Part shown: positions 20,979 to 33,415 of the stretch, piece by piece
Layout of the letters: each line of letters opens with the position of its first letter
Numbering within the stretch: position 1 is the stretch's first letter
Assembly (NCBI GenBank): GCA_958296035.1
Contig: OY282431.1
Span: forward strand, 496,001-560,000
Direction: 5' to 3'
DNA: 64,000 nucleotides
DNA from: Paracoccaceae bacterium
GTDB lineage: Bacteria; Pseudomonadota; Alphaproteobacteria; Rhodobacterales; Rhodobacteraceae
Program-made: the position numbers and the translations under genes
The notes under the pieces: generated by a model
Seen by the model: only the letters and a program-made list of their open reading frames with translations
Told to the model about the DNA's origin: nothing
The model's database searches: none

Positions 20979-20996
20979 CAGTTCATGCATGAACTG
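20979..20996. promoter_or_regulatory. Perfect 18-bp palindrome over the helicase start codon
   Basis: CAGTTCATGCATGAACTG is identical to its reverse complement and contains the ATG used by the helicase gene (20985). With no spacer it looks more like a dimeric operator than an RNA hairpin. Role unproven. Confidence 0.4.
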
Positions 20997-23900
20997 ATTG
21001 GCACTGCAACCGCCGAGCTTGCACACATTCTAACGATTCACCTGCCTGCCCTTGGCGAGAGTTGGTGGAAGACGCACGTCGCAGACCGGCTGAGCTTCCA
21101 GCAACAGCGCATCGCGGAGGAACGCGGGCTCACCAGGCTGGAACAGCTGGATTTTGCCTCCCTGCTTCGAATCGTCGACCAGAATTGGTACGAACTCTCC
21201 GAGGCACTCAATCTGCCGCGCGAGGGGCGCACCTTGGTCAGGGAATTGCAGTCCGTGCGCAATCGGTGGGCGCACCGGTCGGCGGTGCCGGTTCCTGCAG
21301 AGGATCAGTACCGCGATGCCGACACCCTGGCCCGTGTTCTGGGTATGCTTGGTGCCAAGCCGGCGTCAGTCGAGGCGGCAGAATCGGCGAAGAGACGCGC
21401 CCTTTCCGACTTGGTGGCACCATCCGACGCGCCCTCGAATGCCAAGCTTGATCCTGCCAGTATCGGTCTGCTAACCGCACGTCCAGGCGACCCTACAATC
21501 TGCGCCGTCGCTTCACACGCTGCATCGACGATGTTCAAGGTCGGCGATCTCGTAGCGCTGCGCTCCGATCCGAACACCAAAGTGGCGATCATTGGTGTCA
21601 CGGTCGGCACCGCCGAGACCCGCTACCAGGTGTTCCAGGATCAACGTTCGGTCTCTTACTACGAGAGCCAGCTTCGTCCCATCAAGCCCGCCGACGCACA
21701 CTCCCTACTCAGCGCCGGCGACCTGCGTGCCCATCTGACCAGCCTGCATCTGCTATCGCCGTCTACCGCTAACCTGTATTCGCTGCGATCCGGGCGCGTT
21801 CACTATGTGCCTTATCAGTATCGCCCCGTCTTGAGATTGATCCGGGCTGACCGGCCGCGCCTGTTGATCGCCGACGAGGTGGGCGTGGGCAAGACGATTG
21901 AGGCCGGACTGATCATCAAGGAGTTGCGGGCCCGGACGGACATCTCTTCGGTGCTGATCATCTGTCCAAAGGCGCTCGTGACCGAACGCAAATGGGTCGT
22001 CGAGATGAAGCGATTCGACGAGCACTTCGAGGCGCTCGACGGCCGGACGCTCCGTCACTGTCTGCATGAAACCGACCTGGAAGGCGAATGGCCCGACAGC
22101 TATGCTAAGGCCATCATCCCGTTCTCCCTGTTCGATTCAGACCTGCTCTTCGGCAAAAGGAGAAGAGGGTCGCGGGCCAACGGAGGGTTACTCGGCCTTG
22201 ATCCGCCGCCCAGGTTCGATCTCGTGATCGTCGACGAGGCGCACCACATCCGCAACGCGGAGACTTATCTCCATCAGGCGGTGCGCTATTTCTGCGATAA
22301 TGCCCAGGCCGCCGTCTTTCTAACCGCCACTCCGGTCCAACTCGGCAGCGAAGACCTCTTTACCTTGTTGAACGTATTGCGACCGGACCTCGTCATCGAC
22401 CACCTGAGTTTTGAGCTGATGGCTGCGCCCAATAAGTTCATCAACGCGGCCGTGAGCCATTGCCGCACCAGTGCGGAATGCTGGCAGGTCGAAGCCCGGG
22501 CCTGCTTGGTTCAGGTCGCGCAGACCGAGTGGGGCCGCCTCTTCCTACGAGAATCGCCGGCCTTCCAGGACATCTACGATCGGTTAGCAGAGGAGCAGAT
22601 TGACGACGCCATCCGCATCCGCATCATTCGGTCACTGGAGGAGCTTTATACCTTCAGCCCGATGATCAACCGGACCCGCCGCCGGGATATCGGGGAATTT
22701 ACGACCCGCCGTCCCGAAACGCTCACGGTCGAGTTCACGTCCTTTCAACGCCGATTTCATGACGATCTGCTCGACGTCGTAAGCCGCATCCTGGCTCGCA
22801 CCCACGGCGAGCAGAACGTTAAGTTCATGATGACCACGATCCGCCGGCAGGCGGCGAGTTGCCTCTATGGCCTCGCCCCCCTGTTGCGCGACATGCTTGC
22901 CGGAAAACTGGACAGCCTTGAAGCCATGGACGGAGCCATTGGCGAAGCCCCTGTCGATGGCGCCTTCCTTGCCAAGATCCGGGCCGATATTAAGGCACTT
23001 CTGGCGAGGGCCAACGATCTTGATCCCCTCGACCCCAAGGTGCAGGCCCTTGTCGGTGTCCTGCGGGACAAGGACCGAATGGCCAACAACAAGTCGCTGG
23101 TTTTCAGCACCTTTCGGCACACACTCGCCTATATCGAGAAACACGTTGCGGATGCGGGGTTGCGCTACGGCCTCGTACACGGTGGCGTCAGGGACGACCA
23201 CCGTGCCGAGCTGCGCCGTCGGTTCGCCTTGCCGAAGGATGACCCGGAGGCACTGGACATCCTGCTATCCTCCGAGGTAGGCGGCGAGGGCCTTGACTTC
23301 CAGTTCTGCGACCTGCTGGTCAACTACGACCTGCCGTGGAACCCCATGCGTATCGAACAGCGTATCGGGCGTATCGACCGCTACGGCCAACAGAGCGAGA
23401 GCGTTGCCATCGTCAACCTGATTACGCCCGGCACGGTCGACGCGGACATATACGAACGCTGCCTGGTGCGTATCGGCGTGTTTCATCACGCGGTCGGAGG
23501 CAGCGAAGAGATTCTTGGCGAGATTACGCGGGAGATCCACAACATCGCCGATAGCTTCACGCTGACTCCCGAACAGCGTGCCGAGCGCCTGCAACAACTC
23601 GGCGACAACAAGATTGGCCAGGTTCAGGAAGAAACCGCGCTTGAGGAGGAGCAGGCCGAGCTATTCGGCTTGACGGTCCCCAAGCAGTCCTGGCGTGAGG
23701 AAATCGCGGAGGCCGAAAGCTTTTGGCTGTCTCCGGAAGCACTGCAAAGGTGCGTTTCTGCCTATCTGGAGAGCGTCTCGGAGACCGATAGAGCTTATTT
23801 GCTCGGTGACAGGCCCCTCAAGACTCTGCGTCTCAACCAGAAGATGCGGGCCAAGCTGCTCGACGACTACCGCTGCAAGCCACGACCCACCGATCCGGTC

Positions 23901-24581
23901 ACCCGGCATTGGGAGAAGTGGCTTAAGGGTACCGACCCGTTGCTTCGGGTAACCTTCGTCCAGAATACCGCCGCCGCCGACCCGAAGACCGTCTATATCA
24001 ACGTCCTGCATCCCCTGGTCAGGCAAGCGGCGCGGCACCTGGAACGCTCCCAAGCGGCGCAGGTAAGTCTGATCGCCTCAAGCGAAGCTGTCCCACCGGG
24101 CGAATATCCGTTCGCCCTCTACCAGTGGCGCCATGTCGGCATTCGCTCCGATGACAAGCTGATGGCGGTCACCTCAGACCCCGAGTTGGACAGCGCGGTG
24201 ATGTCTCTATTGGAAGTCGCAGCCGACGCGCCCGCCGGCACCGCACCCGACGAAGTTGCAATCGAACAGCTCGATAAGAGGCACCACGTCAAATGGCGCG
24301 CTGCACGCGCAAACCATATGGCGGAGAACCGGGGACTCGTTCAACACCGGCAGCAAAGCCTGAGGACCAGCCACGGGGCCCGATGCAAGTTGCTGGAGGA
24401 CCAGATCGGCAACACGACAAACGACAATATTCGCCGGATGAAGGAGAGCGAATTGGCACGCGCTAAGTGTGATTATGATTTCAGGGTTGCCGAGTTGGAG
24501 AGGCTGGCGGAAAGCGCCGACATCCACGCCACGCTACGGGTCAAGGGCATGCTTCGAATCACGCGGGTAGACGTGGCATGA
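20985..24581 (+). CDS. SNF2/DEAH-type helicase with N-terminal HEPN-like domain, candidate defence protein
   Basis: A 1198-residue protein. Residues 1-110 resemble a Swt1-type HEPN domain, with VRNRWAHRSA giving an Rx4H signature (Arg92, His97) like HEPN RNases. A beta-rich linker follows (about 185-250). The helicase core has Walker A ADEVGVGKTIEAG (Lys303), DEAH box VIVDEAHHI (417-420), motif III FLTATPVQ, motif V SSEVGGEGLDFQFC, and motif VI MRIEQRIGRIDRYGQ (Arg796, Arg799). The last 300 residues are helical and charged. Its TGA overlaps the ATG of the GHKL ATPase gene by 4 bp, so the two are translationally coupled. This architecture is typical of phage-defence islands, but I do not match it to a named system. 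No good Shine-Dalgarno precedes the ATG. It appears intact. Confidence 0.85.
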   Translation: MHELIGTATAELAHILTIHLPALGESWWKTHVADRLSFQQQRIAEERGLTRLEQLDFASLLRIVDQNWYELSEALNLPREGRTLVRELQSVRNRWAHRSAVPVPAEDQYRDADTLARVLGMLGAKPASVEAAESAKRRALSDLVAPSDAPSNAKLDPASIGLLTARPGDPTICAVASHAASTMFKVGDLVALRSDPNTKVAIIGVTVGTAETRYQVFQDQRSVSYYESQLRPIKPADAHSLLSAGDLRAHLTSLHLLSPSTANLYSLRSGRVHYVPYQYRPVLRLIRADRPRLLIADEVGVGKTIEAGLIIKELRARTDISSVLIICPKALVTERKWVVEMKRFDEHFEALDGRTLRHCLHETDLEGEWPDSYAKAIIPFSLFDSDLLFGKRRRGSRANGGLLGLDPPPRFDLVIVDEAHHIRNAETYLHQAVRYFCDNAQAAVFLTATPVQLGSEDLFTLLNVLRPDLVIDHLSFELMAAPNKFINAAVSHCRTSAECWQVEARACLVQVAQTEWGRLFLRESPAFQDIYDRLAEEQIDDAIRIRIIRSLEELYTFSPMINRTRRRDIGEFTTRRPETLTVEFTSFQRRFHDDLLDVVSRILARTHGEQNVKFMMTTIRRQAASCLYGLAPLLRDMLAGKLDSLEAMDGAIGEAPVDGAFLAKIRADIKALLARANDLDPLDPKVQALVGVLRDKDRMANNKSLVFSTFRHTLAYIEKHVADAGLRYGLVHGGVRDDHRAELRRRFALPKDDPEALDILLSSEVGGEGLDFQFCDLLVNYDLPWNPMRIEQRIGRIDRYGQQSESVAIVNLITPGTVDADIYERCLVRIGVFHHAVGGSEEILGEITREIHNIADSFTLTPEQRAERLQQLGDNKIGQVQEETALEEEQAELFGLTVPKQSWREEIAEAESFWLSPEALQRCVSAYLESVSETDRAYLLGDRPLKTLRLNQKMRAKLLDDYRCKPRPTDPVTRHWEKWLKGTDPLLRVTFVQNTAAADPKTVYINVLHPLVRQAARHLERSQAAQVSLIASSEAVPPGEYPFALYQWRHVGIRSDDKLMAVTSDPELDSAVMSLLEVAADAPAGTAPDEVAIEQLDKRHHVKWRAARANHMAENRGLVQHRQQSLRTSHGARCKLLEDQIGNTTNDNIRRMKESELARAKCDYDFRVAELERLAESADIHATLRVKGMLRITRVDVA

Positions 24582-27406
24582 CCGTCATTGAGAGGATTCA
24601 CCAGGATCACCGGGACCTTGCCCGCGTCCTGAAAAAGCATGCAGGCATCCGCAGGGTAGTCGAAGACCTCTATCCGAATACCGCGCATTTCATATACGAG
24701 CTGCTCCAGAATGCCGAGGACACAGGGGCAACCGAGGCTGCATTCGTCCTTACCGCGGACAAGCTCGTGTTCGAGCACGACGGCCGCGCGTTCAACGAAG
24801 CTGACATCCGGGCCATCACCGATATCGGGGAGGGAACCAAGACGGAGGACAACGAGCAGATCGGCCGCTTCGGCATCGGCTTTAAGGCTGTGTTCGCCTA
24901 CACGGAGACGCCGCGCATCTGGTCGCCGAGCTATTCCTTCAAGATTTCCGAAATGGTGCTCCCGTCGGAGATTCCATCGGTCTCAAACCTACGCAAACGC
25001 ACGCGCTTCGAGTTCCCGTTCAACTCTCGAAAGATGCACCAAGCCCAGGCCTTCTCTGAGGTGAAGGCCGGCCTGGAAGAGATTTCCGACAACACGCTGC
25101 TTTTCCTCTCCAACATCGAAATGATTCATTGGCGGATCGACGGAGTTCGGGAAGGCCGGCTGCTCCGGATTCAGCATTCGGATCATCACATCGGGATTCT
25201 TCGAGAGAATGACGACAGGCCGACCGAAAGCACAAATTTCCTCCGATTCACTGAACCGGTCGACGGATTCGAGTGCCAGCATGCTGCCGTCGCCTTCGAA
25301 CTTGAGCCGATCCTCAGAGACGACCCTTCAATTGGGTCCACACCCTTAGAAGAGCAGTTTCGGATTTCGCCCTCGAAACGTGGATGCGTCGCCGTCTACT
25401 TTACGGCAGCGAAGGAAACTTCGAATCTACGCTTCCATCTCCACGCGCCATTCGTCCCGGATCTCAGCCGCTCAAGCATCAAGGACACGCCGGCAAACCT
25501 ACCGCTCTTCAAACAACTCGCCGGGATTGCGGCAAAATCGCTGTCGTCAATCCGCGATCTCGGCTTGCTGGATCGAGAGTTTCTCGCCGTATTGCCGAAC
25601 AGCCAGGATGAAGTCTCCACCCAGTATGCAGACATACGCGACGCCATCGTCGATGCGATGAACAAACGGGCGCTTACTCCCACACACGCCGGCGGCCATG
25701 AACCGGCCGGCCGATTGCTGCAGGCGGAGGCCGGATTGAAGAGCCTGCTTGATCACGATGATATCAATTTCCTGTTCGACACCACCAATCACCGGCGAGA
25801 CTGGGCGATTACTGCGAGGCAAAGAAACAGCCGCGAGGACCGCTTTCTCAGCGATCTCGATATCAAGCGATGGGGTGTCGAGCAGTTCGTGAAGGAATTG
25901 GACAAGCGTTTGTCCAATAAAAGCCGATTCTGCTTTTCGACCACTTCTTGGAAGCAAGGACCCGACGGACCGTTTCTCGGCTGGATATGCCGGAAACCAG
26001 CTGAGTGGCATCGGGCACTGTATGCCCTTTTTTATCGGGAGCTGGAAAACAAGCTGAATCTCTTCAAACAAATCTGTATCGTCAGGTGCTCGGACGGCGA
26101 GTATAGAATTGGCAGCCACACCTATTTCCCGACCCCTGAAACCCGAGAAGACACCATCCATCCCCGCGTCGCAGAAGAGACGTATACAGGCGGGGGAACC
26201 AAAACCGAGCAGAAGCGCGCCAGGGCGTTTCTGGACGGCGTCGGTGTCTGCGAGGTGGGAGAATACGAGCAGATTGAGGCTATTCTCAAACGGCGATATG
26301 CGGCTCCCGCCAGCGTCCCGCCTTGGCAGACCCATCAATCCGACCTGAGGCGCTTCATTGCCCTCGTGGAGGATAAACCGAGTACGAGCAGCCTCTTCAA
26401 GGATTATTTCATCATTGAGGGCTCAAACCATCTCTGGTCCCGACCAGGCGGTCTGTATCTTGATGAGCCATATCTCAAAACTGGACTGAAAGCCTACTAC
26501 GAACCCCTCGCGTCAGGGGCTAACCGCACGGCATTGTCTGACGCCTATAGCGACTTCGACATGCTGCCGCAGCTTATCGAGTTCGCGCAGTCGTGCGGCG
26601 TTGCCGACCGGCTGGCGATTGCGGAGGTCAGTTGCCGCGACAACCCCGAAAAGAAAGAACTACTCAGCGCTCCAGGGTCAGTTCTTACCGAAACCGGGAT
26701 CGACACCGACTTTGCAATTCCCGAGCTCGAAGCCTTGTTTGAGACACCGAATCCGGCTCTTTCCCATCTCGTCTGGCAGACCCTTTGTGTCCGATCGGAC
26801 GACAAGAGAATCCTGAAGGCCACCTATCAAAAAAACAAATCCAATTACCCGCGCTATGCCGATTCACAGTTGGTTCACCAATTGCGCAACGCCGCTTGGG
26901 TTCCCCAACAGGACGCCACGTTCGTCCGCCCTGCCGAGGCCTCGAGTGATCTGCTGCCCAAAGTCTTTCCTTTCGATCCCGGTTGGGCATGGATTACTAA
27001 GATCTACTTCGGCGAGGAGACCGAAACGCTGATTCAGGGATTCGCTGACGCACTCGGCTTTGGCGACGACGAGCTCGCGGTGTTCAGGCGATTTGTGGAT
27101 CTGGCGCCAGATATCCGAAAGGGACTCCTAGAGGGTGTGAGCCAGGTCGACTTGCCCGTTAACAAACCTAATAATCCTGACCGAAGGGCCAGGTCAGTTC
27201 GGAAAAATGCCCGCCAAGCGCCTGAGCGCAAAACCGAGCAGCGTAAGCGGTTGGTGTCTGTCAATCGCGACCGAATCAAGAGAGAAAAAGCAACGCCCTA
27301 TCTGCGGGAACTCTATACCAACGCAGACGGCGTAACCTTCTGTCAAGCGTGCAAGGATAGCCTCCAGGGCGATTCAAAAGTCCTGCGTTTTCTGATTGCC
27401 ATGTAA
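24578..27406 (+). pseudogene. Sacsin-type GHKL ATPase gene, 3' end cut off by an IS element
   Basis: The interrupted reading frame gives 942 residues: 929 native plus 13 encoded by the IS end. The N-terminal Bergerat ATP-binding fold is complete: HFIYELLQNAEDTGATE (Glu41, Asn45), FEHDGRAFNEADIRAI (Asp68-x-Gly), and IGEGTK with IGRFGIGFKAVFAYTE (glycine-rich lid, 96-103). This is the sacsin/MORC-like HATPase type. The long middle region is unfamiliar. Before the insertion the C-terminus reads PYLRELYTNADGVTFCQACK, with a CxxC at 922/925. The rest of that domain lies beyond the IS at 29560-29835, and rejoining gives one frame of 1020 residues. The truncated product may be made but lacks its zinc-binding C-terminus. 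It forms an operon with the upstream helicase (ATGA overlap). Confidence 0.85.
27355..27364. repeat. Left target site duplication (10 bp)
   Basis: GGATAGCCTC here is repeated exactly at 29550-29559, bracketing the IS. Ten bp fits the ISAs1 family. Confidence 0.9.
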
Positions 27407-29549
27407 TGTGGTTTCTGTGTGTCAGCCAGGCCATTATTTTGCCGGATTTATTGACCTCAGTACCGTAAGCCTGCTGGCCATTCATATGTCATGATGCTAT
27501 GGGGCCAGGCATCATGACTGTATCTGCTTCAGAGACTGATATTCCGCTTCGTGAGGTCGAGGTCCACCTCGTGCGCAGCATGGATGCGAAGAGGCGCTGG
27601 GATGCGCTGGTCCGGGCCCATCATTACCTGCCCTGGCAGCGGCTTTTCGGCAAGGCCCTGCATCATGTTGCCGTCCATGACGGCCGCTGGCTGGCTCTGA
27701 TTGGCTGGCAGGGCGGGGCCTTCAAGGTCGGTGTCCGCGACCGCTGGATCGGCTGGTCCCCGCACCAGCAGTTCGCCCGCCTGCATCTGGTTGCCAACAA
27801 CGCCCGCTATGTCCTGCTCGGGCCGAGGCGCCCCCGCAACCTGGCCTCGCGGGTGCTGGCCCTCAGCCTGGCACGCCTGTCTGCCGACATGCAGCACATG
27901 CATGGCTACCCGGTCTACCTGGCCGAAACATTCGTCGATACGGCCCGTTTCCACGGCACCTGCTACCGGGCCGCCAACTGGCGCTCGCTCGGCCTCACCC
28001 GCGGGTTTGCCCGCCGGCCGGGCCGATCACCCCGCTGGCACCACCATGGACAACCCAAGGAGGTCTTTGTGTATCCCTTGCATGCCGAGGCCCGGCAGAA
28101 CCTGTGCGCTGATTCGGCCCCCCACGCCATGAAGGGTGACAAGGCGGCCGCACTCCCCGATGCCCGGACCCTGGGCAGCCTCCATGACCACCTTGCCGGC
28201 ATGCCCGATTTTCGCCGCGCCCGGGGACAACGCTACGCCCTGGCCTGCTACTTCACCATCATGATCGCCGCCCGGCTCTGTGGCTATCGGGGCTATACCG
28301 CCTGTGCCGAATTCGCCGCCCGGCTCGACCAGGACCAACGCGCCGCCATCGGCGCCTTCCGAAGCCCGAAGCAGCAACGCTTCACCGTGCCGGTGGCCGC
28401 CTCCTTCCACAACATCCTGCGTGGGATGCCGCCCGATACCCTCGATACGGTGTTTCGAGAATATTGCTTGTCGCGTAGCGACAGTCAGGCTGCCCTGGCC
28501 ATCGATGGCAAGACCATGCGCGGCGCCTCCCGGCAACGCCCGGACAATGCGAACATCATCACCCTCGCCGCCATCGAACACGGTACCGGTCTGGTCGTCG
28601 GTCAGAACCGGGTTGCCGAGGGCAGCAACGAAATCCCGGCCCTGCGTGACCTTGTCGCTCGGGTCGGCGCCCGACAACGGGTCTTCACGGCTGACGCCAT
28701 GCATGTCCAGCAGGAGACCGCATCGGCTGTCGTTGATGCCGGGGGCCACTACGTTCTGACGGCGGTCAAGGACAACCAGAAAACAATGCACGATCAGCTG
28801 CGCCGCTTCGGTGGCTGGAGCGAGGCCGAAACAGTCCAGGACGACATCGACAAGCAGCATGGCCGCATCGAACAGCGCAGCTGTACGGTGGTCGATCTCT
28901 CCGACAAGACAGGGGACAGCTTCTGTCCCCTGTATGGCCGGCGCCAGGCCTTCCGCATCGAACGCTATCGTGAACAGGTCAAGACCGGCAAGATCAGCAC
29001 CGAAACCATCTACGGCCTGACCTCGCTGGCCCCCGGAGAGGCCGGCCCCCGGGAGATCGCCGATCATGTCAGGTCCCACTGGCAGATCGAGAACCGGCTC
29101 CACTATGTCCGCGATTTCACCTTCGACGAGGATCGCTGCCGGGCCCACACACAGAACATCCCCCAGAACCTGGCGGCCATCTCCAACATGGCCATCTCGC
29201 TCATCAGGCTTGACAGCCGCTTCGCATACATACCGCCAGCCAACCGGCATTTTGGTGCCAATCCCCAGGAGGCCCTTGATGCCGTCATGACATGACGGTT
29301 GCGTGTTGCCCCCCCGGTCAGGGTGGCACACGGGTCATCCTTCTGACCGCGTTTTCTGCGATCGTGACCTCTGGCGGGGCCTGCAGAGCCATGGGGTTCG
29401 GCACCTGTCCGATGCTGTCTGTGGATGGACATTGCCGCTGTCGGGCCGGACCTGCCCGCCAATCACACGACATGACAGCCAGATGATGGTTGAAGTTCAG
29501 AAACGAAGACTGGAATTAGGGCATGACCACTGACTATTGAATAGGCCTG
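27365..29549 (+). mobile_element. ISAs1-family insertion sequence with DruA-fused transposase
   Basis: A 2185-bp element with ends defined by inverted repeats. The left end CAGGGCGATTCAAAAGTC and the right end (reverse complement) CAGGCCTATTCAATAGTC agree at 15 of 18 positions. It is flanked by an exact 10-bp duplication and carries one large gene that appears intact. It interrupts codon 929/930 of a GHKL ATPase gene. Perfect flanks and an open transposase frame indicate a recent insertion, and the element may still be active. Confidence 0.92.
27499..29295 (+). CDS. ISAs1-family transposase with N-terminal DruA/DUF4338 domain
   Basis: A 598-residue fusion. Residues ~10-195 match the DUF4338 (DruA) domain: HHYLPWQRLFGKALHHVAV, RDRWIGWSPHQQFARLHLV, NNARYVLLG, NLASRVLALSLARL, AETFVDTARFHGTCYRAANW and KEVFVYPLHAEAR. 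Residues ~215-590 are an ISAs1 DDE transposase: LGSLHDHLAGMPDFRRARGQ, AIDGKTMRGASRQR (first Asp), VFTADAMHVQQETASAV (second Asp), YVLTAVKDNQKTM, and HWQIENRLHYVRDFTFDEDR (catalytic Glu). The start may instead be the ATG at 27514. DruA alone is known from Druantia anti-phage systems. Here the domain is part of a transposase, so the gene itself should not be called Druantia. Confidence 0.9.
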   Translation: MGPGIMTVSASETDIPLREVEVHLVRSMDAKRRWDALVRAHHYLPWQRLFGKALHHVAVHDGRWLALIGWQGGAFKVGVRDRWIGWSPHQQFARLHLVANNARYVLLGPRRPRNLASRVLALSLARLSADMQHMHGYPVYLAETFVDTARFHGTCYRAANWRSLGLTRGFARRPGRSPRWHHHGQPKEVFVYPLHAEARQNLCADSAPHAMKGDKAAALPDARTLGSLHDHLAGMPDFRRARGQRYALACYFTIMIAARLCGYRGYTACAEFAARLDQDQRAAIGAFRSPKQQRFTVPVAASFHNILRGMPPDTLDTVFREYCLSRSDSQAALAIDGKTMRGASRQRPDNANIITLAAIEHGTGLVVGQNRVAEGSNEIPALRDLVARVGARQRVFTADAMHVQQETASAVVDAGGHYVLTAVKDNQKTMHDQLRRFGGWSEAETVQDDIDKQHGRIEQRSCTVVDLSDKTGDSFCPLYGRRQAFRIERYREQVKTGKISTETIYGLTSLAPGEAGPREIADHVRSHWQIENRLHYVRDFTFDEDRCRAHTQNIPQNLAAISNMAISLIRLDSRFAYIPPANRHFGANPQEALDAVMT

Positions 29550-29559
29550 GGATAGCCTC
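29550..29559. repeat. Right target site duplication (10 bp)
   Basis: An exact copy of GGATAGCCTC from 27355-27364. Removing one copy with the IS restores the ATPase reading frame. Confidence 0.9.
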
Positions 29560-29835
29560 CCCTTCAAGCTCAATGGTCACTACTTCTTCGAAGCCGTGGA
29601 ATTCCTCCTGGACCTGAAGCGACACCACTATCAGAACTACCTCGCCCTATGCCCGAATCATGCAGCGATGTTCATGCACGCCAACCCCTTGAAGGAAGAA
29701 ATGAGGGACAGGTTTCGCGGCCTGGAGGGCAATGAACTGGCGTTGACTCTCGCCGACCAACCAGTGACCCTCTATCTCACCGGCAAACATATCCTGGACG
29801 TCAGGACCGTCATCGAAGTCGATGACAAAGAGTAA
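29560..29835 (+). pseudogene. Severed 3' end of the GHKL ATPase gene
   Basis: Encodes the missing 91 C-terminal residues, starting PFKLNGHYFFEAVEFLLDLK and ending TVIEVDDKE. LALCPNHAAMFMHAN supplies CPxH, which with the CxxC before the IS forms a plausible zinc-binding module resembling the HNH/zinc-ribbon layout (CxxC ... FFEAVEF ... CPNHAAMFMHA). The usual HNH catalytic His pair is not evident (EAVEF where HNH proteins have EVHHL), so nuclease activity is doubtful. The fragment has no ribosome binding site of its own and is unlikely to be translated separately. Confidence 0.8.
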
Positions 29836-30760: not shown

Positions 30761-32887
30761 TTAACCGACTCGGCGCAGATCTCGGTTTCTTGATACGCGT
30801 ACCCTGTCCACCGTGATTGCACCGTCGGCGACCAGAAGACCGATCCCGCCCGCGGCAAGACTGGTAATCGAGCTATCGTCGGCGACGAGATCTTTGTTGC
30901 CTGCGCTTGCTGAAATGCGTTTGCCGCACAGTTTCATCGAAAGGGGAACCAGTTCGTCGAGGTGCCAGTGGAAATCAGTTTGGGCAAGAACCACACGTTC
31001 ATCGTCGCGAACTCGAAGAATCTGGAATTTTCGATCGCGGCTCAGTGTTGCAGCATAGAACCGATGCAGCCCATCGACACGCGCTGCCAACCCGGCATAG
31101 CTGGCAAGATGGATCGTCATCCCGACATCTACTCTGTAGTCAGTCCACTGGCGCGTCCCCTGGATGATCAGGCCTTCGCCCTGGTCCTGAGCAATTCGTA
31201 ATCTTGCATTGTATCCCGTGAAGTTGTCAGCTGAACTCACCCAGGCGCGATGCCAGAAACTTCCCTTTTCATCCGGAGGGCGAAGTTCCAATTCAGGAAC
31301 ACCGCTCCAGCCCAGGCGGTCAAGCAGAATCTTGCCGCTTACGTCGGAATCGGTGGTTGTGACAGAGAGGCCGACCTCGGCAATCGGTTGGGATGCACAA
31401 TCCGGGAGAATCCAGGAAAGATCTCCGGACTGACCGGGTGCAAGCATCGCTACTGGTCCACTGATGTCGACCAGACGGTCGCTGTTCCCGTAGCGGCGAA
31501 TGAGTAGCTGGGCCGCGATTGCAACGGTATTCTCCTTGGGCGCGATGAGTGTGGCCGTTAATTCCTGACCTGGATAGATGAGGGGAGAGGCCGTCAACTC
31601 GTAGGTCCGCATGCGCAGGACGTTGCTGGTTGTGAAGGTCGGCGTGGTCACCACGACAGACCGACCACATCCTATGGATTCAAAGCCGATCGACAGGAGG
31701 TTCCTGCCTTCGTGGGGTACGCCCGCGACCCGGGCTCCGGTTGAAGGGTCGGTTCCGCTGGAGATACGGAATCCCTGGGTTGACCCAGGCAGAGAGAAAT
31801 GAAATTGCGCCCCGCCCTTGGGAGCAACGGGAGGTGGCGAATTATTCAACCTGTGGCCGAGACCGGTTATGTAGTCGGTCATTCGAACCGCATCGTTGAT
31901 TGCAAAGCCTCCATCAGCGGAGGAAATCAGCATGCGGTCTGCCAGTGGACCTCGCCAGTCCGGCCCTGAGTTCAGGCCATCAAGCCCGTGCATTAGGCCG
32001 AGAAGGCATCCGACGTTGCCGGCATTGCAATCCGTGTCCCAACCGGAGGTGTTCACGATCTTCTGAGCCCGGCTGAAATCATCAGATGCGTAAAGGATGG
32101 CCATGATCATCAGCGCGTGATTAGGGATCACATGACAGATTCCAGTATACCTGTCATAGCCATAAAGTGCCGCGATTTGCCGGCGGGTATCCCGCCAGTC
32201 CGGATAGGTCCGGTGCCAGGCTCGAACGTCCTCGATAAGGCGAGCAATTCCGCAGTCGGCGGGAATGACCGACAATCCCGTTTCAACCAGGGTATCAATG
32301 TCCGCAGTCACGAATGCCCTTGCTTCCATCGCTGCCCACAGCATCGCGGCGTGGACGGCCTCTCCGTCATGGCTGACTCGGGCTGCATCGCGGGCTAACC
32401 TTGCGGCGAGCTCCGGATTTCCCGGGACAACCATGGGCCAGGCGTCAATGAAGATCTGTGCACCGATTTGTTCAGCAAGTGTCTTGCCGTTGGTTGCAAT
32501 CGAACCACTATCGGGTGCGGTGATACCCCTCTTCAGATTGAGCCAGGCCGTGTGTTCGGTAAAAACTCCATTCCCTTCCCAACAGAGTATGGAACGCTTC
32601 TCGACAATGTAGTTCAGCCAGGTCTTGCCGATTGCCTCCGATGAAATGTCTGATGCCCGGGTGCAGTCCTCAAGCGCACGGACAAAGGTGAATGTTCCCG
32701 AAATATCGTCGTCTGTCACAACAAGCGGGTCGCCCAATCGATCGTGGACATAGTACTCGATTTCCCCGAGCTGGCACATGATTCGTTCGTAGGTCCAGCC
32801 CTCAAAGGGACGGCCCAGGTAAACGCCGATCAATTTGCCAAGAATTCCAGCGTATACACGCTCTTCATAATCTTGAGGAAGCGCCAT
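30761..32887 (-). CDS. ADP-ribosylglycohydrolase-family protein with long C-terminal domain
   Basis: A 708-residue protein. The first ~330 residues are an ADP-ribosylglycohydrolase (DraG-like) fold: YAGILGKLIGVYLGRPFEGW, the metal-binding VTDDDISGTFTFV, and the second metal site NTSGWDTDCNAGNVGCLLGL. The remaining ~350 residues are beta-rich and look like carbohydrate-binding or LamG-like sandwich modules (RQWTDYRVDVGMTIHLASYA, GLAARVDGLHRFYAATLSRD). No signal peptide is visible. Family members remove ADP-ribose from proteins or small molecules, and some are nucleoside or sugar hydrolases; the extended architecture suggests the latter is possible. ATG at 32887 is preferred because GGGA precedes it; a start four codons earlier is possible. 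Confidence 0.8.
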   Translation of the reverse strand: MALPQDYEERVYAGILGKLIGVYLGRPFEGWTYERIMCQLGEIEYYVHDRLGDPLVVTDDDISGTFTFVRALEDCTRASDISSEAIGKTWLNYIVEKRSILCWEGNGVFTEHTAWLNLKRGITAPDSGSIATNGKTLAEQIGAQIFIDAWPMVVPGNPELAARLARDAARVSHDGEAVHAAMLWAAMEARAFVTADIDTLVETGLSVIPADCGIARLIEDVRAWHRTYPDWRDTRRQIAALYGYDRYTGICHVIPNHALMIMAILYASDDFSRAQKIVNTSGWDTDCNAGNVGCLLGLMHGLDGLNSGPDWRGPLADRMLISSADGGFAINDAVRMTDYITGLGHRLNNSPPPVAPKGGAQFHFSLPGSTQGFRISSGTDPSTGARVAGVPHEGRNLLSIGFESIGCGRSVVVTTPTFTTSNVLRMRTYELTASPLIYPGQELTATLIAPKENTVAIAAQLLIRRYGNSDRLVDISGPVAMLAPGQSGDLSWILPDCASQPIAEVGLSVTTTDSDVSGKILLDRLGWSGVPELELRPPDEKGSFWHRAWVSSADNFTGYNARLRIAQDQGEGLIIQGTRQWTDYRVDVGMTIHLASYAGLAARVDGLHRFYAATLSRDRKFQILRVRDDERVVLAQTDFHWHLDELVPLSMKLCGKRISASAGNKDLVADDSSITSLAAGGIGLLVADGAITVDRVRVSRNRDLRRVG

Positions 32888-33415
32888 GGTCGTTCCCATT
32901 GAGAATTATCTGTCCCTGCGAATGGTATACTGATCCCCAAACCCGGCGAAACGTCGATTTGCAACAACTAGCTGCATAACCGCAAGAGGATCGGTCGGGA
33001 ATTGGGAAAGGGTCACGCAGTCGAAAGCGGATTGCGACACGGCCGGCTGCCTCCGGGAAGCAATGCACTAATGGGGTTTGCCGCCCCAGGCTAATCCCCG
33101 GCCAGTAGAGCAACATCAGGGAATCTGAACCGGCTGCAGGGACATCGAGAACTCCGTTGTTCAGTCCAGTCGCTGGCCGGCCAGGGTGAATGCCAGGGGA
33201 TACATTCAGCTTGCAGCCAAAGGTAACCAGGCGACGCGACGCAGCCCCGGCCTCACCCCGCAACCACATTCTGGCACATGGACTCCGCTGTCCCGATTCT
33301 GCCAGTGCAGCAAGGGCACGGATTTGCGATGCTGCAGCAATGGCCGTGTCGAATCCTGGTAGCCGCTGCCGGCCCGCCAGCAGGCGGGGAAGTAAGACTG
33401 CGTGCGACGGTCAGA
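32888..33415. other. Gap upstream of the ADP-ribosylglycohydrolase gene
   Basis: Just over 500 bp between sdaA and the next minus-strand gene. No family-like frame, RNA gene or clear promoter was recognised. Confidence 0.4.

What the first reader, a model, noticed from the sequence alone, without database searches (positions are those of the whole stretch)
20985..29835. Two-gene candidate defence module: HEPN-helicase plus sacsin-type GHKL ATPase
Seen: an ATGA-coupled pair encoding a 1198-residue SNF2/DEAH helicase with an N-terminal Rx4H (RNRWAH) HEPN-like domain, and a large Bergerat-fold ATPase ending in a CxxC...CPxH module. Known: HEPN RNases, SNF2 helicases and sacsin/MORC-like ATPases recur in anti-phage systems such as DISARM- and Hma-like operons. 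Inference: the pair without methylase or nuclease partner may be an unnamed system, with the helicase sensing DNA and HEPN acting as an abortive RNase.
Basis: partly seen in the sequence, partly recalled or inferred. Interest (0 to 1): 0.78.

Follow-up and report, generated by a model that had tools for sequence, protein, structure and literature searches.

The report
Unnamed HEPN-helicase plus Hsp90-like ATPase module
Two neighbouring genes, one encoding a DNA motor protein with a built-in RNA-cutting domain and the other an Hsp90-like ATPase, are found side by side in many bacteria near known virus-defence genes, so they probably form an unnamed immune system, but the copy read here has been broken recently by a jumping gene.

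Summary
Window 20985-24581 encodes a 1198-aa protein with a Swt1-type HEPN domain (Pfam E=2.3e-14, RNRWAH) and a RapA/DrmD-like SNF2 motor; it overlaps by ATGA with 24578-27406, a sacsin-type GHKL ATPase. An ISAs1-type element with a 10-bp target duplication, present in three identical copies in the genome, recently cut off the last ~95 codons of the ATPase gene. Intact copies exist elsewhere.

The helicase is tied to the ATPase: 72 of 77 assessable helicase loci have it immediately downstream, against 0 of 17 control helicases. The reverse is looser: GHKL relatives also occur without the helicase. HEPN residues R, N and H are each kept in 65 of 66 rows, but HEPN is optional (62 fused, 1 split, 14 absent, of 77). 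The ATPase tail is a McrA-type HNH fold without catalytic histidines (0 of 68). Neighbours are rich in defence genes, in one locus a BrxC-PglX-PglZ operon.

Best reading: a SNF2-GHKL DNA-surveillance core that switches on a HEPN RNase; defence is likely, the mechanism inferred. I found no name for it in the library searched. Its parts have known relatives, so: new variant of a known kind.

The parts
20985..24581 (+). HEPN-SNF2 helicase gene, 1198 aa
   Evidence: ORF; Pfam; RapA is the nearest solved structure by profile and by fold (model mean pLDDT 80.3)
21048..21344 (+). HEPN domain (Swt1-like), residues 22-120
   Evidence: PF18731 E=2.3e-14; all-helical in the model
21258..21275 (+). HEPN motif R92-N-R-W-A-H97
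   Evidence: R92, N93 and H97 each in 65 of 66 rows; L083 lacks R and H, L088 lacks N
21531..21680 (+). beta-rich Tudor/SH3-like segment, residues about 183-232, after a disordered linker (145-179)
   Evidence: strands in the model; weak SH3 Pfam hit E=0.085; BrxHII and BREX-related helicases carry an N-terminal TUDOR (passages of PMC12839542); the assignment here is inference
22233..22244 (+). DEAH box (D417 E418 A419 H420); Walker A K303-T304 lies upstream
   Evidence: D417, E418, H420, K303 and T304 invariant, A419 nearly invariant in the 58-row alignment A5
24578..27406 (+). sacsin-type GHKL ATPase gene, 942 aa as read, cut short by the insertion
   Evidence: ORF; SACS PF25794
24578..24581 (+). 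ATGA overlap of the two genes
24647..24931 (+). GHKL core, residues 24-118
   Evidence: E41 78/78, N45 77/78, G99 78/78 in the GHKL alignment
27341..27352 (+). CQxC (922-925), first half of the HNH-type zinc module
   Evidence: first C 69/69, second C 64/69; McrA HNH match E=7.8e-6 with the family profile
27356..27365 (.). left copy of the 10-bp target-site duplication
27366..29550 (.). ISAs1-type insertion element
   Evidence: homology gap against L040; its 2101-base core occurs three times at 100% in the genome
27499..29295 (+). DruA-domain plus ISAs1 transposase ORF, 598 aa
   Evidence: NCBIfam transpos_ISAs1 207 bits; Pfam DruA, DDE_Tnp_1
29551..29560 (.). right copy of the target-site duplication
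29551..29835 (+). cut-off 3' end of the ATPase gene (CPxH part and conserved C-terminal H)
   Evidence: translation; blastn to L040; profile match

Best explanation
A conserved two-gene immune module. Gene 1 is a RapA/DrmD-like SNF2 double-strand DNA translocase with an N-terminal HEPN RNase. Gene 2 is an Hsp90/MutL-like GHKL ATPase that ends in a catalytically dead McrA-type HNH zinc module. Proposed mechanism: (1) the two proteins form a complex on invading DNA or on a phage replication/transcription intermediate, the dead HNH module and the Tudor-like segment giving contacts; (2) SNF2 translocation and GHKL clamp opening and closing act as an ATP-driven check; (3) the conformational change frees the HEPN domain to cut RNA and stop translation or growth (abortive infection). 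HEPN is an exchangeable output: some versions lack it and may use a partner in trans, such as the RecD2-like gene. The GHKL protein is the more general part, since relatives occur without this helicase. Shown here: domains, conserved active sites, linkage, co-inheritance, defence-gene neighbourhood. Inferred: complex formation, trigger, RNase activation, protection. In this strain the truncated ATPase probably leaves the module impaired.
For: HEPN by profile, with R92, N93 and H97 each in 65/66 rows. One locus (L088) has HEPN as its own 141-aa gene abutting a HEPN-less helicase (Pfam 2e-15). GHKL immediately downstream in 72 of 77 assessable helicase loci (70 by ORF; L046 and L077 by tblastn) against 0 of 17 control SNF2 helicases. 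Helicase and GHKL distance matrices correlate at r=0.80 over 66 pairs; the largest of 2000 permutations was 0.165. GHKL active-site residues kept (E41 78/78, N45 77/78); Hsp90, GyrB, MutL and sacsin SR1 among the nearest folds (model of intact relative L040, pLDDT 87.7). HNH family match to McrA with H at 951/952 in 0 of 68 and at 973 in 1 of 68. 97 neighbour proteins hit 139 PADLOC families at E<=1e-20 against 2 families for 97 proteins from random regions. BrxC, PglX and PglZ directly before the module in L111, PglZ in L116 and L164. The pair is also on contigs labelled viral (L165, L166, L168, L169; L164).
Against: I saw no phage test. HEPN is absent from 14 of 77 loci with an intact 5' end; tblastn found no hidden HEPN in them, so it cannot be the only effector in the family. 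Starting from the ATPase, 2 of 5 strong matches in the class lack the helicase (L205, L206), as do L120, L121, L122, L036 and L163. In the window itself the 10 ORFs scanned are metabolic or structural, not a defence island. L066, L081 and L088 have no GHKL downstream. One HEPN (L083) has lost R and H. The HEPN profile found no solved HEPN structure (best E=0.15), so the HEPN call rests on Pfam, the motif and helical content. One control (L129) also has a weak HEPN-like ORF (26.6 bits) at -1 of its helicase. No complex was modelled.
Confidence: 0.55

Rival explanations
1. The core works as a DNA-restriction or replication-blocking machine without abortive suicide. SNF2 and GHKL remodel or loop invading DNA, as proposed for MORC-helicase RM systems, and nucleases in trans or BREX/RM partners do the damage. 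HEPN is only a back-up.
For: HEPN-less pairs in 14 of 77 loci; RecD2-like gene at +2 in 9 loci; BREX and type III RM genes directly upstream in some loci. MORC/paraMORC-SFII helicase operons were described as RM-associated (passages of PMC2292703). BrxL is said to be often replaced by helicases in type 5/6 BREX (passages of PMC12839542).
Against: The HEPN active site is conserved almost without exception where the domain is present, which argues for a primary role there. The pair's own HNH looks dead, and no nuclease family recurs as a constant partner in the neighbour clustering.
Confidence: 0.3
2. A transcription or stress factor like RapA, not a defence system: the SNF2 protein remodels RNA polymerase and HEPN trims RNA under stress.
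For: RapA is the nearest solved structure by profile and fold.
Against: Patchy distribution: 2 of 101 genomes (own and G005) carry a close helicase. Records from many phyla, defence-rich neighbours, and carriage on plasmids and virus-labelled contigs.
Confidence: 0.07
3. In this genome the locus is a decaying remnant and does nothing, whatever the family does.
For: The ATPase gene is cut by an insertion element present in three identical copies. The lost part carries half the zinc module and a C-terminal histidine kept in 67 of 67 rows.
Against: The helicase-HEPN ORF is intact over 1198 aa and the GHKL core is intact, so partial function is possible. The break looks recent.
Confidence: 0.5

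Closest known systems
DISARM DrmD / BREX BrxHII / RapA (SNF2 helicases)
   Same: SNF2 motor; the best PADLOC hit of the window protein (2.2e-115) and of the 8 further members scanned is one DrmD model; RapA is the nearest solved structure.
   Different: Below NCBI's DrmD cut-off (312.7 against 610 bits); HEPN at the N-terminus in most members; GHKL partner instead of DISARM partners.
Tiamat (TmtA) in PADLOC
   Same: 44 of the 44 GHKL proteins scanned match TmtA models. GHKL relatives without the helicase exist (L205, L206, L120, L121, L036), so the ATPase family and TmtA may be one continuum.
   Different: For L040 the best match covers residues 4-443 of 1029 and 43-487 of a 1486-position model. 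Here a helicase gene is directly upstream. That Tiamat is a single-gene system is recalled (the describing paper is not held).
MORC/paraMORC plus SF2 helicase RM systems
   Same: GHKL-S5 ATPase next to an SF2 helicase, including SWI2/SNF2, with HNH or other nucleases (passages of PMC2292703).
   Different: Here the GHKL is of the sacsin type, the HNH is fused and looks dead, and methylase/nuclease genes are not constant partners. The MORC-specific motif was not tested.
HEPN-SWI2/SNF2 fusion noted in 2013 (WQE_15321)
   Same: A Swt1-like HEPN fused to a SWI2/SNF2 ATPase is listed as active (passages of PMC3710099).
   Different: In the passages read, no GHKL partner gene is mentioned for it and no system is named. 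I did not fetch that protein, so whether it is the same family is untested.
Hma / BREX-related DUF499 systems
   Same: HEPN and SNF2 helicase in one defence operon (passages of PMC12839542).
   Different: There HEPN sits on the DUF499 AAA+ ATPase and a methylase is core; here HEPN is on the helicase and the ATPase is GHKL.

Membership tests
DISARM | DrmD helicase by the curated NCBIfam model | tested here: not met
   312.7 bits against cut-off 610
DISARM | DrmA/DrmB/DrmC and a DISARM methylase next to the helicase | tested here: not met
   None among the 10 window ORFs scanned with Pfam (not every ORF of the window was scanned). Four MZB/DUF1998-type hits lie elsewhere in the genome, none in the window. 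The feature list is recalled.
Tiamat | full-length match to a TmtA model | tested here: not met
   Best match 3-446 of 942, model 42-491 of 1486; L040 likewise
Tiamat | stand-alone single gene | tested here: not met
   In the window the helicase overlaps it, as at 72 of 77 helicase loci; but relatives of the ATPase do stand without the helicase. That Tiamat is single-gene is recalled.
BREX | BrxC, PglX and PglZ core in the locus | tested here: not met
   Absent among the 10 window ORFs scanned. Present beside some relatives: BrxC-PglX-PglZ in L111, PglZ in L116 and L164.
Hma | methylase and DUF499-type ATPase with the helicase | tested here: not met
   The partner is GHKL by Pfam; no methylase among the 10 ORFs scanned
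HEPN superfamily (Swt1-like) | profile match and Rx4-6H motif | tested here: met
   PF18731 E=2.3e-14; motif residues in 65 of 66 rows
HEPN superfamily (Swt1-like) | RNase activity | not testable with these tools
   needs an assay
sacsin/GHKL ATPases | N-box E/N and G-box residues | tested here: met
   E41 78/78, N45 77/78, G99 78/78, G101 77/78; all four are present in the window protein
HNH nucleases (McrA type) | catalytic histidines | tested here: not met
   Fold matches McrA, but H at 951/952 in 0 of 68, at 973 in 1 of 68 and at 978 in 27 of 68 rows. Which histidines are catalytic is recalled.

The most novel reading that the evidence does not exclude
A so far unnamed immune core in which a RapA-like translocase and a sacsin/Hsp90-like ATPase with a pseudo-nuclease tail form a portable infection checkpoint with interchangeable outputs: fused HEPN RNase, split HEPN, or a RecD2-like helicase gene in trans. 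The same core can be plugged into BREX behind PglZ (where I recall BrxL in type 1). It would be a bacterial case of a sacsin-type chaperone-like ATPase gating a HEPN effector, echoing the GHKL-HEPN pairing inside animal sacsin.
Probability: 0.4. Interest if true: 0.78.

Novelty: new variant of a known kind. Interest (0 to 1): 0.6.

Why it matters
If true, it adds a widespread defence module that the PADLOC copy used here recognises only in pieces, as DrmD and TmtA relatives, and it gives a bacterial setting in which a sacsin-type GHKL ATPase and a HEPN domain work together, as both occur in one chain in animal sacsin (passages of PMC3710099). It makes a clear question testable: does a GHKL clamp plus an SNF2 motor decide when a HEPN RNase fires? 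The dead HNH tail would be a restriction nuclease turned into a binding part.

Tried and rejected
Rejected: (a) that the small gene before the HEPN-less rhizobial/sphingomonad helicases (176-210 aa, 6 loci) is a detached HEPN: Pfam gives no HEPN for two of them and tblastn finds none in these loci; by eye it looks like a sigma-type region, untested. (b) That the third gene is a universal partner: it lies at +2 in only 9 loci, plus upstream in L077. (c) That the pair is DISARM, Tiamat, BREX or Hma: see the membership test. (d) That the insertion is an assembly oddity: it has a 10-bp duplication and two further identical copies in the genome. (e) That the link is equally strict from both sides: it is not.

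Led nowhere: a genome-contig scan with the window ATPase alone (24 pattern hits, none confirmed); a PDB profile search with the HEPN alignment (nothing below E=0.15); structural search of the full helicase model showed no HEPN entry among the 50 rows printed; the second structural library was not available; paper searches for TmtA with anti-phage, for HEPN with SNF2, GHKL and defense (2020 on), and for the Swt1-like HEPN names returned no paper. The describing paper for Tiamat is not held. The library holds open-licence papers only, so 'unnamed' means unnamed there and in the PADLOC, NCBIfam and Pfam copies used. The Halorubrum region was fetched only to look at an 'HNH' GHKL relative and gave no helicase.

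Limits: ORFs were called mechanically. The 66 HEPN rows include the window, L014, L088 and a second L097 copy (64 distinct). The 68-row HNH count leaves out rows cut at the 3' end and the window. PADLOC neighbour counts are families, not proteins, and the control proteins are not matched by taxon; the 97 neighbour proteins were taken nearest-first from 323 candidates in 66 loci. In the helicase control set 3 of 20 regions gave no helicase ORF and were left out. In the HEPN tally (62 fused, 1 split, 14 without, of 77) three rows whose helicase starts at a contig edge (L062, L080, L086) were dropped. In the adjacency tally (also of 77) three rows without room downstream (L053, L084, L119) were dropped; the five others without an intact GHKL at +1 are L066, L081, L088 (none), L105 (broken remnant) and L112 (GHKL upstream).


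Full report
What is there. Window 20985-24581 encodes a 1198-aa protein and 24578-27406 a 942-aa protein, overlapping by ATGA. The first has a Swt1-like HEPN domain at residues 22-120 (PF18731, E=2.3e-14), a SNF2-related domain and Helicase_C. The second has the sacsin GHKL domain (SACS PF25794, E=1.9e-19; NCBIfam P_loop_sacsin 95.4 bits over its cut-off of 50). The finding is right about both proteins.

The insertion. Homology with the intact relative L040 (84% helicase identity in the best segment) runs to window 27365 and resumes at 29551, with a 10-base overlap on L040. That makes a 10-bp target-site duplication around a 2185-bp element (27366-29550). It carries a 598-aa DruA-domain/ISAs1 transposase. 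A 2101-base core of the element occurs three times at 100% in this 3.64-Mb genome, so the event looks recent. It separates CQxC (27341-27352) from the CPxH half and from a C-terminal histidine kept in 67 of 67 rows. Intact copies exist in relatives such as L040, L041 and L061.

From the helicase, the pair is a unit. A scan of the genome collection with an alignment of five helicases returned 80 loci, the best of 525. GHKL is the next gene downstream on the same strand in 70 by ORF calling and in L046 and L077 by tblastn. Three loci have no room downstream (L053, L084, L119), so 72 of 77. The five others are L066, L081 and L088 (none), L105 (broken remnant) and L112 (GHKL upstream). As a control I took 20 regions around other, more distant SNF2 helicases from the unnamed relatives. 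A helicase ORF was recognised in 17. 0 of 17 have a GHKL gene at +1; 2 of 17 (L134, L142) have a much longer GHKL relative (2332 and 2468 aa) at -1; one (L129) has a weak HEPN-like ORF at -1. The -1 cases fit the general GHKL-helicase theme in print (passages of PMC2292703). Distances between helicases and between ATPases correlate at r=0.80 over 66 pairs; the largest of 2000 permutations was 0.165. Among IMG/VR contigs, 4 of the 6 close hits (L165, L166, L168, L169) carry the pair in order; L167 has a GHKL match on the other strand and L170 is cut off.

From the ATPase, the link is looser. A profile of 44 GHKL proteins run over 385 genomes of the class gave five matches above 450 bits, the window's included. 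The window's, G125 and G245 have the helicase at -1 (G245 without HEPN); G144 and G157 do not. GHKL relatives in L120, L121, L122, L036 and L163 also lack it. So the helicase needs the ATPase neighbour more than the reverse, and the ATPase family may grade into what PADLOC calls TmtA.

Spread. Record labels in the tree include Pseudomonadota, Planctomycetota, Actinomycetota, Bacillota, Bacteroidota, Spirochaetota, Cloacimonadota, Acidobacteriota, Myxococcota, Thermodesulfobacteriota, Nitrospirota, Armatimonadota, Fibrobacterota, Hydrogenedentes and an archaeal methanogen. Many are metagenome bins: near-identical rows with different phylum labels (L075 and L079) warn against trusting each label. 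Close relatives are rare in the window's own kin: the same pair was found in 2 of 101 genomes, counting its own.

HEPN. In 66 HEPN rows the motif residues R92, N93 and H97 are each kept in 65; L083 lacks R and H, L088 lacks N. 23 of 23 N-termini given match HEPN_Swt1. L088 has the domain as a separate 141-aa gene abutting a HEPN-less helicase. Of 77 loci with an intact helicase start, 62 have fused HEPN, 1 split and 14 none, and tblastn finds no hidden HEPN in the negatives. The tree needs 13 gains or losses of the label, though it still contains three cut rows scored as HEPN-less. So HEPN is an exchangeable output, not the core. A profile search against solved structures found no HEPN entry (best E=0.15).

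The motor. The 8 family members scanned have the same DrmD model (PDLC02623) as best PADLOC hit, as does the window protein (2.2e-115), but the window protein scores 312.7 against NCBI's DrmD cut-off of 610. RapA is the nearest solved structure by profile (2.9e-50) and fold (top five rows; model pLDDT 80.3). The model shows HEPN helices, a disordered linker (145-179), a beta-rich segment and the motor.

The ATPase. A model of the intact L040 protein (pLDDT 87.7) resembles Hsp90, GyrB, MutL, MORC2 and sacsin SR1. GHKL residues are kept (E41 78/78, N45 77/78). The C-terminal stretch matches the HNH domain of McrA (6ghc, E=7.8e-6), keeping zinc ligands but with histidine at the two positions aligned with McrA's HH in 0 of 68, at the position after the second zinc pair in 1 of 68, and at the last HNH histidine in 27 of 68. 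It is therefore most likely a binding module, not a nuclease.

Neighbourhood. 97 neighbours (nearest first, from 323 candidates in 66 loci) hit 139 PADLOC families at E<=1e-20, against 2 families for 97 proteins from 20 random regions. L111 reads BrxC, PglX, PglZ, HEPN-helicase, GHKL, RecD2-like; PglZ also precedes the module in L116 and L164; L047 has type III Mod and Res directly before it. A 1211-1291-aa RecD2-like gene (AAA_30/AAA_19, UvrD_C_2; Pfam run on two members) is at +2 in 9 loci, of which L102 and L110 are cut by the contig end and L103 holds only a 121-aa fragment; its C-terminus looks like a PD-(D/E)xK nuclease by eye only. In the window the 10 ORFs scanned are metabolic or structural.

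Mechanism. Best supported: an ATP-driven checkpoint on foreign DNA (SNF2 motor, GHKL clamp, dead HNH contact) that releases HEPN RNase activity. Shown: anatomy, conserved active sites, linkage, context. Inferred: complex, trigger, RNA target, protection. The rival that the core restricts DNA with partners in trans is serious because HEPN-less pairs exist.

Prior art. A HEPN-SWI2/SNF2 fusion was listed in 2013 (WQE_15321, passages of PMC3710099), MORC/paraMORC-helicase RM operons in 2008 (passages of PMC2292703), BrxHII and BREX-related helicases with TUDOR in 2026 (passages of PMC12839542), and a GHKL-fused Shedu in 2025 (passages of PMC12137116). In-paper term searches found 0 occurrences of sacsin, GHKL and Hsp90 in PMC12839542 and PMC10853773, and 0 of GHKL, Hsp90, HEPN and DrmD in PMC12458937. 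Ten paper searches showed me no paper naming this pair; I judged most of the listed papers from titles and abstract beginnings only. Tiamat facts are recalled.

Noticed in passing
L111 102-20942; L116 7358-20817; L164 6369-15687: The module lies directly behind PglZ (33, 33 and 22 bases before the helicase ORF), in L111 in a BrxC-PglX-PglZ operon, and in L111 and L116 followed by a RecD2-like gene: a possible BREX variant.
   Followed up: partly
L033, L034, L039, L089, L090, L091, just before the helicase: A 176-210-aa gene, sigma-factor-like by eye, takes the place of HEPN before HEPN-less helicases of rhizobia and sphingomonads; Pfam finds no confident family in two of them.
   Followed up: partly
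window 27499-29295 and G000 C1 614567-616667, 691320-693420: DruA-domain fused to an ISAs1 transposase, three identical copies in the genome: a recently active element.
   Followed up: yes
L134, L142 (unnamed relatives): A different, very long GHKL protein (2332 and 2468 aa) stands directly upstream of another SNF2 helicase: perhaps a second GHKL-helicase class. L207 has a 1496-aa GHKL directly after a distant SNF2 helicase.
   Followed up: no
L205, L206, L120, L121: About 1060-1090-aa GHKL relatives without the helicase; in L121 the gene before it is an 898-aa UvrD-like helicase by eye.
   Followed up: partly
L097 9890-16742 and 18909-23496: Two copies of the helicase-GHKL pair in one locus of Phycicoccus elongatus, the second cut by the end of the stretch.
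   Followed up: no
L106 1-8614: GHKL genes on both sides of one helicase.
   Followed up: no
L036 9887-12949: A related GHKL gene without the helicase, between a NERD-domain gene and annotated qatABCD genes on a Sulfuricurvum plasmid.
   Followed up: no
window 30761-32899: A 712-aa ADP-ribosylglycohydrolase-domain gene downstream of the insertion, on the other strand.
   Followed up: no
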